Source: Bacteroidia bacterium
GTDB taxonomy: Bacteria; Bacteroidota; Bacteroidia; UKL13-3
Direction of reading: 5' to 3'
Assembly (NCBI GenBank): GCA_018058135.1
Contig: JAGPCK010000002.1
Coordinates: forward strand, 1-64,000
DNA length: 64,000 nt
The notes below the pieces were generated by a model that saw only the letters and a list, made by a program, of their open reading frames with translations, had not been told where the DNA came from and did not search any database. Positions 53,644 through 64,000 of this stretch are shown in pieces (the stretch's first letter is position 1; the number at the start of each line of letters is the position of its first letter). A program made the position numbers and the translations under genes.

Positions 53644-54003
53644 TAGTGCAAAACTGCCACTGATTGCACAGATAAACACAGATTAAATAAGATCTAATGA
53701 AAGACGTCTCATTAAACATTAAGAATTAAGCATTCAACATTAAGCGAAGCGCACAGGACTGCCACAGATTGCACTGATGAACACAGATTAAATAAAATTT
53801 AACGGAAGACGTTTCATTAAACATTAAGAATTAAGCATTCAAAATTAAGCGAAGCGCAAGACTGCCACTGATTGCACAGATTAGCACAAATTAATTCAGA
53901 AAGGTAGCTCCCTCATAAACACTTAAACACGTACACACATAAACACCCAAAAAATCCTTTCATTAAGAATTAAGAATTCAAAATTAAGAATTAAAGCGCA
54001 GCG
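53644..54003. repeat. Interspersed repeat array between iaaA and cphB
   Basis: No gene. It contains three imperfect copies (from about 53652, 53757 and 53863) of a two-part unit: ACTGCCACTGATTGCACAGA-type sequence with ACAGATTAAAT, then CATTAAACATTAAGAATTAA followed by AAGCGAAGCGC. The third copy changes to CTCATAAACACTTAAACACG in place of the middle part. Related units fill 54955-55790. They read as degraded interspersed repeats with mosaic structure, not as a CRISPR: lengths differ and no fixed spacer exists. Confidence 0.8.
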
Positions 54004-58519: not shown

Positions 58520-58640
58520 GGCTCTGAGTTGCAACATAGCGCAGCGGTCTAATGAATGGAGTGAATAAACTCAGGAGAGCAACTGAGAGGTTTCTGAATT
58601 GCAAACTTAGGTAAGCAATGAATAAACTAAGGAGAGCAGA
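58520..58640 (+). repeat. Degenerate REP-like repeats at the left edge of the accessory block
   Basis: Two broken copies of the RAYT-linked palindromic repeat. The first (58520-58581) has CTGAGTTGCAA, then GCGCAGCGGTCTAATGA and AATAAACTCAGGAGAGCA; the second (58590-58640) has CTGAATTGCAAACTTAG and AATAAACTAAGGAGAGCAGA. The copy at 63310-63393 has the same order of parts, so the elements are homologous. This lies directly after the cphA stop. Confidence 0.7.
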
Positions 58641-58648
58641 AGAACAAA

Positions 58649-60361
58649 ATGAAATTAACAATTAACAACTTCGGAATTAGAAATTACAAAAGCTTTGACG
58701 ACAATGGAGTTCATTTATATGATCTTTCCAAAATAAATATAGTTATTGGCAAAAATAACTCTGGAAAGTCAAACATACTGAAATTTCTTAGTGATCTTCA
58801 TAATTCAAACCGCACAAAAAACAAAAGAGAGTTTCCTTCTGAAATTAATACTCAGCATAAAAGAAATGGGAAAAATAGTATTATCAGACTTACATTAACG
58901 TCAGAGCAGCTCAAATTGCCTGACTTTAATTTAATAGTAAATTTCCAAGATCCTGTTTCTAAAAGAAAGTACATGAATCTTTTTGAATCCAAACATACTA
59001 TTGATTTTAATCTTGTAAATGACACTATAGATTCTTTAGGTCAAACCTTCAACAGCACAGTTCCCAATGAAGCCATATGCAAGGCTCAATCAAAATATAA
59101 TTTGAATGCAAGTAGAGAAAATATTATTCAATCAATTAAAGATGAAAAAGCAGTAGTTGTAAGAAACTACATATCCGAAATAGAATCAAAAATAATTTAC
59201 ATCCCTGATTACAGATTTGTAAAAGAGGGCCAAAAAATTCAACAATCTAATCTTGAGATTGATGGATCTAACATAATTTCCAAAATGTTTTCAATGCAGA
59301 ATCCAGAGCTTGGCTCAGAGAAAGAAAGAGAAAACTTTTTCAAGATACAAGAACTAACTAGAAATCTGCTAAACATCAAAAACCTTAGAATTGAAATACC
59401 TGCAAGCAAAAAAGAAATTATAATAAATTGCTTTGGGAATAGACTCCCTCTTGAGTCATATGGTACGGGGATTCATCAACTAATCCTGCTTTGTTGTGCA
59501 TTAACAATTCATAACAACAACATTGTATGTATTGAAGAACCAGAAATACATCTTCACCCAGAACTTCAACGAAAATTTATCAATTTCCTAAAAACTACTG
59601 AAAATGTTTATTTCATCTCAACTCACTCTAATGTGTTTATGGATTTTGATGAAAATGTTTCTATTTACCACGTTTCATATGATGGAGACAAATCAATTAT
59701 AGACCGCTGTGATACAAGCAAACAATCCTATGAAATACTAAATAATTTAGGCTATAAAACGAGTGATTTATTGCAAAGCAATGGCGTTATTTGGGTAGAG
59801 GGCCCTAGCGATAGACTATATTTAAAAAAATGGATTGAGTTTGAAGATCCAAAACTAATTGAAGGTATACATTATTCAATTATGTTTTACGGAGGGCGTT
59901 TGCTTTCCCATTTAAGTCTAAATGCCGAACTAGTAAATCAGGAACTCATTCCATTACTACGAATTAACAGAAACTCATTTGTATTAATGGACAAAGACCG
60001 GTTCAATAAAAAGGGAGAATTAAATGCAACCAAAATGCGTATAATTAAAGAAATTGGGGAAAACCGATGTTGGATTACAAAAGGAAAAGAGATTGAAAAT
60101 TACATCTCAGAAAACTTGTTAAAACAATGGTTAGAAAAGTACTCAACAAAACAGATTCAAAATATATCTTGGACACCTGAAACAACTATTGACGAGGTGC
60201 TCAGTAGAAAAAAAATGAAATTTAAGTACAGCTCTGACAAAGTAAAATACTCAAAAGAAATTTCGGCTCTTATAACTATAGAAAGTTTGAATCATTCTGA
60301 TCTAAAGAAAAACTTGAAAAATGTTGTTGATATTATAAATCAATGGAACTATAATAATTGA
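58649..60361 (+). CDS. OLD-family ATPase with TOPRIM nuclease domain
   Basis: 570 residues of the overcoming-lysogenisation-defect family. An ABC-type ATPase fills about 1-350: Walker A GKNNSGKS at 34-41, an ABC signature-like SYGTGIHQLI, Walker B IVCIEEPEIHLHPELQ, and a following H-loop ISTHSNVF. The C-terminal TOPRIM domain follows (about 375-500; VIWVEGPSDRLYLKKW, then FVLMDKDRFNKKG). OLD proteins are nucleases linked to phage defence or DNA metabolism. No Gabija-type helicase partner is next to it. It is more A+T-rich than cphA and is flanked by REP-like repeats, so recent acquisition is plausible. Confidence 0.93.
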   Translation: MKLTINNFGIRNYKSFDDNGVHLYDLSKINIVIGKNNSGKSNILKFLSDLHNSNRTKNKREFPSEINTQHKRNGKNSIIRLTLTSEQLKLPDFNLIVNFQDPVSKRKYMNLFESKHTIDFNLVNDTIDSLGQTFNSTVPNEAICKAQSKYNLNASRENIIQSIKDEKAVVVRNYISEIESKIIYIPDYRFVKEGQKIQQSNLEIDGSNIISKMFSMQNPELGSEKERENFFKIQELTRNLLNIKNLRIEIPASKKEIIINCFGNRLPLESYGTGIHQLILLCCALTIHNNNIVCIEEPEIHLHPELQRKFINFLKTTENVYFISTHSNVFMDFDENVSIYHVSYDGDKSIIDRCDTSKQSYEILNNLGYKTSDLLQSNGVIWVEGPSDRLYLKKWIEFEDPKLIEGIHYSIMFYGGRLLSHLSLNAELVNQELIPLLRINRNSFVLMDKDRFNKKGELNATKMRIIKEIGENRCWITKGKEIENYISENLLKQWLEKYSTKQIQNISWTPETTIDEVLSRKKMKFKYSSDKVKYSKEISALITIESLNHSDLKKNLKNVVDIINQWNYNN

Positions 60362-60378
60362 AATTGGGTTCCCCTGCT

Positions 60379-60410
60379 GGCACTCCGCTATCCTGAGTTT
60401 GCAACTAAGA
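60379..60410 (+). repeat. Partial REP-like repeat
   Basis: CTCCGCTATCCTGAGTTTGC followed by AACTAAGAAGAG: the left arm matches the repeats at 62545 and 62665, the right arm is degraded. It lies between the OLD gene and the two-TM gene. Confidence 0.6.
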
Positions 60411-60417
60411 AGAGATA

Positions 60418-62527: not shown

Positions 62528-62544
62528 TTAGATCTCTCAGCTAT

Positions 62545-62563
62545 CCTGAGTTTGCAACTCAGG
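62545..62563. repeat. REP-like palindrome, copy in the first tandem unit
   Basis: CCTGAGTT and AACTCAGG, 8-bp arms around TGC. Identical to 62665-62683. Confidence 0.85.
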
Positions 62564-62614
62564 ATTCTTCCATGTTACTTTCCATAAATTCCTTTTTCTT
62601 ATAGTTTTGCGTTA

Positions 62615-62707
62615 ATGAGCAAAGAAGACGGTTACAAAATAAGAAACAAGGAAGGCTCCGCTATCCTGAGTTTGCAACTCAGGATTCTTCCATGTTGCTT
62701 TCCGTAA
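62615..62707 (+). pseudogene. Truncated N-terminal copy of the RAYT gene
   Basis: The first tandem copy encodes the same first 14 residues as the intact transposase (MSKEDGYKIRNKEG) and then reads into the second repeat copy and stops at 62705. It is a by-product of the duplication; it has its own -7 box (62602-62609) but could make only a 30-residue peptide. Confidence 0.8.
62665..62683. repeat. REP-like palindrome directly upstream of the RAYT promoter
   Basis: CCTGAGTT-TGC-AACTCAGG, the canonical form of the repeat family around this gene. It is the likely substrate type of the adjacent enzyme, by analogy with REP/RAYT pairs. Confidence 0.85.
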
Positions 62708-62721
62708 ATTCCATTTTCTTA

Positions 62722-62729
62722 TAGTTTTG
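62722..62729 (+). promoter_or_regulatory. Bacteroidota -7 box of the RAYT gene
   Basis: TAGTTTTG, perfect TAnnTTTG, ending 5 nt before ATG 62735, so the transcript would be nearly leaderless. The first tandem copy has the same box at 62602-62609. Confidence 0.6.
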
Positions 62730-62734
62730 CAAAA

Positions 62735-63289
62735 ATGAGCAAAGAAGACGGCTACAAAATAAGAAACAAGGAAGGCATTCATTTTATAACATTTGCCGTT
62801 GTGGGTTGGGTTGATGTATTCTCCAGAAAAGAATACGTAGATATATTACTTAACAGCATACAGTATTGCCAACAACAAAAAGGATTGATAGTACATGCTT
62901 GGTGTGTTATGACCAATCATGTTCATCTGGTAGTTTCAGCCAAACAAAATAATACAAGTGATGTACTGCGAGACTTTAAAAAGTTCACCAGCAAACAAAT
63001 CATTCAGGCTATAACAAATAATCCGCAGGAGAGCAGAAAAGAATGGATGCTGAATATTTTCAGGGAAAATGGTGAAAACAATTCACGTAACAGTGAGTTT
63101 CAGTTCTGGCAACAAAACAATCAACCCAAAGAACTATTCAGTAATGAGTTTACCATGCAAAAACTTGACTATATACACAGCAATCCGGTTACAGCAGGTA
63201 TTGTTGAATATCCTGAACACTACCTGTACAGCAGCGCGAAAGATTACAGAGGAGAACCGGGTTTGATAGCGGTAGAGTTATTAGACTGA
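62735..63289 (+). CDS. REP-associated tyrosine transposase (RAYT, HUH/Y1 family)
   Basis: 184 residues of the IS200-like Y1 transposase fold. The HUH motif is TNHVHLVV (His62, His64), preceded by VHAWCVM; the late YIHSNPVTAGIVEYPEHYLY block is the RAYT signature and holds the candidate catalytic tyrosine. There is no tnpB, and no IS ends adjoin it. Palindromic repeats surround it (62545, 62665, 63312), as expected for a RAYT with its REP elements. It would nick and move single-stranded repeat DNA. The start ATG 62735 is fixed by the preceding -7 box and by the duplicated copy. Confidence 0.92.
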   Translation: MSKEDGYKIRNKEGIHFITFAVVGWVDVFSRKEYVDILLNSIQYCQQQKGLIVHAWCVMTNHVHLVVSAKQNNTSDVLRDFKKFTSKQIIQAITNNPQESRKEWMLNIFRENGENNSRNSEFQFWQQNNQPKELFSNEFTMQKLDYIHSNPVTAGIVEYPEHYLYSSAKDYRGEPGLIAVELLD

Positions 63290-63309: not shown

Positions 63310-63393
63310 GGCTCCTGAGTTGCAAACTCAGGAGAGCAGAGGCAACTTAGCGAAGCGGTCTCATGAGCAAAGCGAATAAACTCAAGAGAGCAG
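63310..63393 (+). repeat. REP-like element at the right edge of the accessory block
   Basis: It begins with a perfect 10-bp stem (CTCCTGAGTT-GCA-AACTCAGGAG, 63312-63334), then AACTTAGCGAAGCGGTCTCA and GCGAATAAACTCAAGAGAGC. The same order of parts occurs at 58520-58581 after cphA. The rest of 63290-63408 holds nothing else. Confidence 0.8.
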
Positions 63394-63408
63394 ATTTATG
63401 TAAAACAC

Positions 63409-63479: not shown

Positions 63480-64000
63480 TTATTCAGAAGAGATAATGAT
63501 TCTTCTGTTTAATGGTTGGATAGGCCTGAAGTTATTGTGACTTTTACTGGCAAACTCTTCGAGAATACCACTGTCGGCTGTGATATGCGATTTAAGCAGA
63601 TAAAATTGGACTATTTCATTACACCCCGGGGTAGTAAGTGAACCTGAATAAGTATAATATTTTGACGTACTGGTGCCCACATCTTCCGGCAAAAGAGCTG
63701 ATAAGTTAAACAACGTGTCCTTAGCTTCACCATCACTGCTTTTCTTTGACCACACGGCAAAGGCGTTTCTTAAAAAGCCGGAGGTATGCGTGATTTTATT
63801 CAATGAATCAACCATTACACTTACCACAGCCAATTTGCTTGTTTTGGTATCTAAGTGTACCATATGAATTTCCATAGGGTAAAAAACACCATTTACTGAG
63901 TGTTCGCTATGGGTGTGCACATGGGCCGCAATAAAATAATACGTTGTGCCATTTATGCTGATGCTGTTATTAATGTTGGTATCTCCTATAAGCGATAAGC
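63480..64000 (-). CDS. Alpha-type carbonic anhydrase, 5' end outside the window
   Basis: About 173 C-terminal residues of an alpha-carbonic anhydrase; the start is beyond 64000. The Zn-ligand region reads FIAAHVHTHSEHSVNG (the HxH pair) and MEIHMVHLDTK (third His); YSGSLTTPGCNEIVQFYLL is the family's GSLTTPP-like block with GC in place of the usual second Pro, and NFRPIQPLNRR closes the fold. Such enzymes interconvert CO2 and bicarbonate and are usually exported; a signal peptide would be in the missing part. The gene is followed by a likely terminator. Confidence 0.93.
   Translation of the reverse strand, partial: LSLIGDTNINNSISINGTTYYFIAAHVHTHSEHSVNGVFYPMEIHMVHLDTKTSKLAVVSVMVDSLNKITHTSGFLRNAFAVWSKKSSDGEAKDTLFNLSALLPEDVGTSTSKYYTYSGSLTTPGCNEIVQFYLLKSHITADSGILEEFASKSHNNFRPIQPLNRRIIISSE

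What the first reader, a model, noticed from the sequence alone, without database searches (positions are those of the whole stretch)
62541..62776. Exact 120-bp tandem duplication of a RAYT promoter plus first 14 codons
The period is exactly 120 bp with seven differences over 116 positions, and the copied unit runs from the palindrome through the -7 box into codon 14. A transposase that acts on the palindrome may have produced this by single-strand nicking and re-copying at its own gene. The leftover gives a second promoter and a 30-residue peptide with the transposase N-terminus, which might dimerise with or inhibit the enzyme.
Basis: partly seen in the sequence, partly recalled or inferred. 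Interest (0 to 1): 0.55.

Follow-up and report, generated by a model that had tools for sequence, protein, structure and literature searches.

The report
Self-repeating ends of a REP-transposase gene
A 120-base piece holding the DNA hairpin, promoter-like stretch and first 14 codons of a hairpin-cutting enzyme gene is repeated in tandem, and relatives of this gene often carry such repeats of their own ends, starting beside the hairpin, which hints that the enzyme itself may make them.

Summary
The tandem duplication is real: 62536-62655 and 62656-62775, period 120, 8 differences. The gene is a REP-associated tyrosine transposase (RAYT; NCBIfam NF047646, best fold match 4ER8), probably Bacteroidota group 5 / subclass 2.6. 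The unit starts at the outer side of the REP hairpin and ends at codon 14. It is not a one-off: 13 of 114 RAYT loci carry a tandem copy crossing their own gene's start or stop, against 0 of 441 and 0 of 429 control gene ends. In one single-contig relative, two RAYT elements listed as 100% identical differ in their right end: six 81-bp units (last codons plus REP) versus one plus a partial; a third copy has five left-end units. For that element the REP-side boundary is constant and the inner one varies. Best reading: REP-anchored amplification of RAYT element ends, probably by the enzyme cutting beside its REP; the promoter and codons are passengers. The catalytic step is inferred, and a test of cut-site chemistry was not significant. 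The inhibitor-peptide idea is not supported: upstream peptides are unconserved and the 14 codons encode a low-confidence coil.

The parts
62536..62655 (+). Tandem unit, copy 1: REP flank, REP hairpin, leader with -7-like box, ATG and first 14 codons
62656..62775 (+). Tandem unit, copy 2: same parts, joined to the complete RAYT gene (one extra shared C at 62776)
62543..62565 (+). REP hairpin of copy 1 (10-bp stem, 3-nt loop, preceded by GCT)
   Evidence: ssDNA fold -8.7 kcal/mol, z -4.65
62663..62685 (+). REP hairpin of copy 2
   Evidence: z -5.71
62602..62609 (+). -7-like box TAGTTTTG, copy 1 (no TTG upstream at the matching place)
   Evidence: Bacteroidota promoter consensus recalled
62722..62729 (+). 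-7-like box TAGTTTTG, copy 2 (TTG at 62695-62697)
   Evidence: Bacteroidota promoter consensus recalled
62615..62707 (+). 30-codon ORF, RAYT residues 1-14 then unrelated; probable by-product
62735..63289 (+). RAYT (REP-associated tyrosine transposase), 184 aa, NHVH / WQ / YIHSNP
63312..63334 (-). Right-end REP hairpin, inverted relative to the left one
   Evidence: z -3.82
63374..63394 (-). Degenerate outer half-REP beyond the right-end hairpin, like the outer modules of relatives
   Evidence: (family D3); interpretation

Best explanation
This is a REP-anchored tandem amplification of the left end of a RAYT element. Shown: the unit begins just outside the REP hairpin on its GCT side and runs inward past leader and start codon to an arbitrary-looking point in the gene; RAYT loci in Bacteroidota do the same at either end, repeatedly and in different copy numbers. 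Inferred: the RAYT cuts single-stranded DNA on the 5' side of the REP, giving a fixed outer end; the inner end is set loosely by a second cut or by a short match of 0-4 bases; the strand is joined or recopied next to the same REP, leaving a tandem unit that can expand further. The promoter-like box, ATG and 14 codons are passengers, and the 30-aa ORF is a by-product.
For: Gene-end-crossing tandem copies in 13 of 114 RAYT loci (5' end 6 of 111, 3' end 9 of 107; index included) against 0 of 441 and 0 of 429 control gene ends. REP-side boundary 0-16 nt outside a hairpin's 5' foot in 17 of 43 locus-sides against 6.3 by shifting. Single-contig genome G023: two copies listed as 100% identical at unrelated loci with six 81-bp right-end units versus one plus a 64-bp partial; a third copy (92%) with five 87-bp left-end units; right-end pieces all end at query base 714 (716 where the query itself runs on into the next unit) while inner ends lie at 576, 607, 633 and 655. 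Near-identical relatives with different unit numbers: L023 two left units, L022 and L028 one (92-94% DNA identity); L084 three extra left units, L082 and L089 none (about 91% protein identity). In the window's own genome 3 of 5 full-length RAYTs carry such a duplication: window, C43 and C125/C66, where two contigs overlap by exactly 127 bp inside the repeat. Fold match to 4ER8, a RAYT bound to its REP. Published in vitro cutting of TnpA-REP enzymes next to REP at C|T and C|A (PMC8266576, passages).
Against: No catalysis was observed. The inner breakpoint can be given a 3' C in only 14 of 43 cases, 9.8 expected, P=0.083. The C-rich outer motif was spotted in the same data; only 10 of 57 hairpins of loci without duplications fit it. 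26 of 43 locus-sides have no boundary within 16 nt of a perfect hairpin, and 12 of the 43 had no such hairpin in range; for the index locus BLAST drifts leftward to 22 nt and only the gap-free alignment gives 7 nt. Rows are not phylogenetically independent. 101 of 114 RAYT loci lack a gene-crossing unit. Tandem REP arrays are also known where slippage or recombination would be an adequate cause.
Confidence: 0.6

Rival explanations
1. Hairpin-stimulated replication slippage or microhomology template switching, with no part for the transposase; the REP is only an obstacle, and unequal recombination then expands the arrays.
For: Short matches (0-4 nt) at several junctions; arrays of 99% alike units; REPIN clusters with flanks in tandem are known (PMC3116915, passages).
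Against: The REP-side edge clusters on the 5' guide side of the hairpin at both gene ends and, in G023, stays constant while the inner edge varies; plain slippage does not predict that polarity.
Confidence: 0.25
2. Nested insertion: a complete element inserted into codon 14 of an older copy, whose right part was then lost.
For: Elements of this family appear mobile, and the two window copies differ by 7%.
Against: No RAYT remnant follows the right end (L001 not among the loci with more than one hit); cannot give six near-identical units.
Confidence: 0.08
3. The duplicated leader is selected: a second promoter or a short N-terminal peptide regulates the RAYT.
For: Period is a multiple of three and the ATG is intact here; some other loci keep an upstream ATG.
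Against: Peptides differ beyond the copied codons, 5-79 aa or absent; right-end units are at least as common and carry no start codon; residues 1-15 lie outside the fold.
Confidence: 0.04
4. Assembly artefact of a metagenome bin (two strain variants laid in a row).
For: The genome is a 127-contig, 84% complete assembly; reads not available.
Against: Parallels in named isolate genomes (for example L084, L099) and in a single-contig genome.
Confidence: 0.03

Closest known systems
Tandem REPIN clusters next to RAYT genes in Pseudomonas fluorescens SBW25 (PMC3116915, passages read)
   Same: REP units reiterated head to tail together with flanking sequence, some beside RAYT genes; a second, unknown mechanism was inferred there
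   Different: Here the unit contains the ends of the RAYT gene itself (start or stop codon), in Bacteroidota; the passages read do not mention that
[quoted passage not shown]
   Same: REP plus variable flank, tandem
   Different: GTAG-tagged REPs of other groups; no boundary analysis or RAYT gene fragments in the passages read
TnpA-Y1 subclass 2.6 / RAYT group 5 of Bacteroidetes, flanked by atypical hairpins without GTAG (PMC6006769, passages read)
   Same: NH[LIV]H, WQ, YIH motif, length about 180 aa, atypical REP on both sides
   Different: YIHSNP instead of YIH[QN]NP; end duplications not mentioned in the passages read
E. coli, S. maltophilia and Marinomonas REPtrons (PMC8266576, passages read)
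   Same: Enzyme that cuts ssDNA beside REP at C|T or C|A and rejoins it
   Different: GTAG guide there, GCT-type here; [quoted passage not shown]
REPIN / MITE derivatives of RAYT elements (concept partly recalled)
   Same: Two ends without the gene
   Different: G002, of the window's genus, carries two mini-elements that keep the REP, leader and about 15 first codons plus the right REP

Membership tests
RAYT / TnpA-REP (REP-associated tyrosine transposase) | Family profile above curated cut-off | tested here: met
   NF047646 102.3 bits, cut-off 80; Y1_Tnp PF01797 31.3 bits, cut-off 23
RAYT / TnpA-REP (REP-associated tyrosine transposase) | HUH pair, W and catalytic Y conserved | tested here: met
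   H62, H64, W125, Y146 invariant in 55 sequences
RAYT / TnpA-REP (REP-associated tyrosine transposase) | Fold of TnpA-REP | tested here: met
   AlphaFold2 pLDDT 94.1; best PDB match 4ER8, E 6.5e-8
RAYT / TnpA-REP (REP-associated tyrosine transposase) | Gene flanked by inverted palindromes that also occur elsewhere in the genome | tested here: met
   three sites at the gene, others on C1, C43, C50, C111 and at 60391
RAYT / TnpA-REP (REP-associated tyrosine transposase) | Cuts and rejoins its cognate REP | not testable with these tools
   Needs purified enzyme
TnpA-Y1 subclass 2.6 (RAYT group 5) | Bacteroidota host, NH[LIV]H, WQ, YIH[QN]NP | tested here: inconclusive
   NHVH, WQ, but YIHSNP; nearly all named relatives are Bacteroidota; no subclass profile was available
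TnpA-Y1 subclass 2.6 (RAYT group 5) | REP without GT[AG]G tetranucleotide | tested here: met
   GCTA or GCTC stands 5' of the hairpin
Tandem REPIN cluster | REP doublets (REPINs) with flanks in tandem next to a RAYT | tested here: not met
   Each unit holds one REP, not an inverted doublet

The most novel reading that the evidence does not exclude
Bacteroidota RAYTs carry out one-ended events: they cut at a fixed place on the 5' side of their REP and copy or move that end, with a variable stretch of their own gene, back beside the REP. The arrays and the mini-elements that keep first codons would then be natural intermediates in the birth of REP and REPIN repeats, and these RAYT elements are themselves mobile.
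Probability: 0.3. Interest if true: 0.7.

Novelty: new variant of a known kind. Interest (0 to 1): 0.48.

Why it matters
How REP repeats spread is described as poorly understood (PMC8266576, abstract seen). RAYT loci whose ends are copied one to six times from a REP-side boundary give a natural record of events at the enzyme's own substrate, and elements listed as 100% identical with different unit numbers make the process testable. They also suggest that this RAYT group moves as a whole element, against the stated view for other groups.

Tried and rejected
Nested insertion was considered: no RAYT remnant was found to the right of the element. A fixed inner breakpoint near codon 14 was considered: inner ends range from upstream of the ATG to about codon 41, so no single codon is favoured; the spread was only inspected. 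Cut-site chemistry (3' C at the inner breakpoint) was tested and was not significant, although single loci fit it (window, L099, L114, L173). A strict outer motif CC(0-2)GCY explains only 12 of 43 boundaries, 3.4 expected. A sigma-70 scan found nothing on the + strand near the gene. Plasmid records gave one weak match, viral contigs two distant relatives, the sequence search of solved structures only a chance hit. No closer allele of the index element was found.

Not claimed: that this has never been described. Literature searches were (one search failed); of six papers passages were read (PMC6006769, PMC2817692, PMC3686654, PMC8266576, PMC3733652, PMC3116915), the rest only as listings.

Full report
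Observation. The window holds a tandem duplication in perfect register, 62536-62655 / 62656-62775, period 120, eight differences. Each copy comprises 7 nt, a 23-nt palindrome (10-bp stem, 3-nt loop, ssDNA fold z -4.65 and -5.71), a leader with a TAGTTTTG box and the ATG with 14 codons. Copy 2 continues into a 184-aa gene. The palindrome returns inverted after the gene (63313-63333), so the gene lies between inverted ends that match over 29 nt. The left edge of the duplicated unit coincides with the outer edge of that 29-nt match.

The gene. It is a RAYT: NF047646 at 102.3 bits over a cut-off of 80, weak Y1_Tnp, H62, H64, W125 and Y146 invariant among 55 aligned sequences, and a confident model (pLDDT 94.1) whose best solved match is 4ER8, a RAYT bound to a REP hairpin. 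The motif set resembles TnpA-Y1 subclass 2.6 / RAYT group 5, a Bacteroidetes group with atypical REPs lacking GTAG (PMC6006769, passages), though YIHSNP differs from the listed YIH[QN]NP. The REP here is preceded by GCTA or GCTC.

Recurrence. Eighty related loci came from the genome collection and 97 whole genomes were searched, 52 with a match. Among 114 RAYT loci (L001-L005, L022-L130), a looser scan finds a direct repeat of at least 40 bp within 800 bp of the gene in 70. With strict criteria (50 bp, 80%, period up to 450, crossing a gene end with more than 9 nt inside the gene) 13 of 114 qualify, index included: 6 of 111 testable 5' ends, 9 of 107 testable 3' ends. The same scan on other ORFs of 100 codons or more in 41 stretches gives 0 of 441 and 0 of 429; ORFs within 400 bp of a RAYT match were dropped. 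In those stretches 8 of 44 RAYT ORFs qualify, partly the same loci, one (L153) with a doubtful start. Fisher P values are 5.9e-5 and 3.8e-7, without correction for relatedness.

The same genome. Of five full-length RAYT matches in the window's genome three show the pattern: the window (left end), C43 (right end, 145 bp, 96.6%) and C125, whose end overlaps the start of contig C66 by exactly 127 bp inside a right-end repeat of period about 237 (93%) with C-terminal codons. That these contigs adjoin is my inference; it also suggests that short-read assemblies undercount such repeats.

Unit number varies between near-identical elements. L023 has two left units where L022 and L028 (92-94% DNA identity) have one; L084 (Epilithonimonas) has four REP-leader units, three of them extra, where L082 and L089 (about 91% protein identity) have one intact hairpin. 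In G023, one contig of 3.24 Mb, two copies at unrelated loci are listed as 100% identical over 714-716 bases. One ends in six 81-bp units of last codons, stop and REP (TRF 99% matches); the other in one such unit plus a 64-bp partial. A third copy (92%) has five 87-bp left-end units that stop before the start codon. Right-end pieces in that genome end at query base 714, or 716 where the query itself runs on into the next unit, while inner ends are 576, 607, 633 and 655; the 576 and 607 pieces lie away from any full copy and could be remnants. G002, of the window's genus, has two element copies (90%) and two mini-elements made of REP, leader, about 15 codons and the right REP.

Boundaries. In 43 locus-sides with a repeat (at least 50 bp, 80%), the REP-side edge lies 0-16 nt outside the 5' foot of a hairpin of at least 7 bp in 17, against 6.3 when shifted (no simulation of 20,000 reached it). 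A C-rich motif before GCT fits 12 of 43 against 3.4, but it was noticed in the same data and fits only 10 of 57 hairpins in loci without repeats. Among 80 paired hairpins CCC occurs within 14 nt on the 5' side in 21 and on the 3' side in 6, GCT at the 5' foot in 39 and the 3' foot in 17. In the window the shared C allows the outer cut to be read as C|T and the inner one as C|A, the two dinucleotides cut by a Marinomonas TnpA-REP (PMC8266576, passages); some other loci fit, but over 43 rows a 3' C is possible in 14 against 9.8 expected, P=0.083. This part remains a lead.

Mechanism. Shown: units that begin beside a REP, with a REP-linked outer edge and a variable inner edge, at both ends of RAYT genes, in changing numbers. 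Inferred: the RAYT supplies the break. The rival without the enzyme, hairpin-stimulated slippage, cannot be excluded by sequence. The peptide idea is disfavoured: upstream ORFs are 5-79 aa or lack a start and share nothing beyond the copied codons, and the first 15 residues form a coil before the first strand. Copy 1 also lacks the TTG that copy 2 has upstream of the -7-like box; promoter assignment rests on a recalled consensus.

What is known. Tandem REPIN clusters with flanks beside RAYTs (PMC3116915) and REP clusters with variable flanks (PMC3733652) are published; the passages read do not describe RAYT gene ends inside the repeated unit. Hence a new variant of a known kind.

Noticed in passing
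58560-60411: A gene for an AAA_15/AAA_21 ATPase (58649-60361) lies between degenerate REP-like sequences (58594-58610 on -, 60391-60411 on +), as if REPs flank a non-RAYT gene.
   Followed up: no
53648-53894: Tandem array of a 105-bp unit, 2.4 copies, 86% matches, not examined further.
   Followed up: no
L171, L172 (G023:C1:1662296-1663011 and 556345-557058): Two RAYT elements listed as 100% identical at unrelated loci of one single-contig genome, suggesting whole-element mobility.
   Followed up: partly
L203, L204 (G002:C78:38410-38600, C19:14581-14739): Mini-elements with left REP, leader, about 15 RAYT codons and right REP but no gene body.
   Followed up: partly
L005 and L006 (G000:C125 and C66): Contigs share an exact 127-bp end inside a right-end RAYT repeat, so the repeat probably broke the assembly.
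   Followed up: yes
63480-63998: Eukaryotic-type carbonic anhydrase gene on the - strand next to the RAYT element, open at the window end.
   Followed up: no
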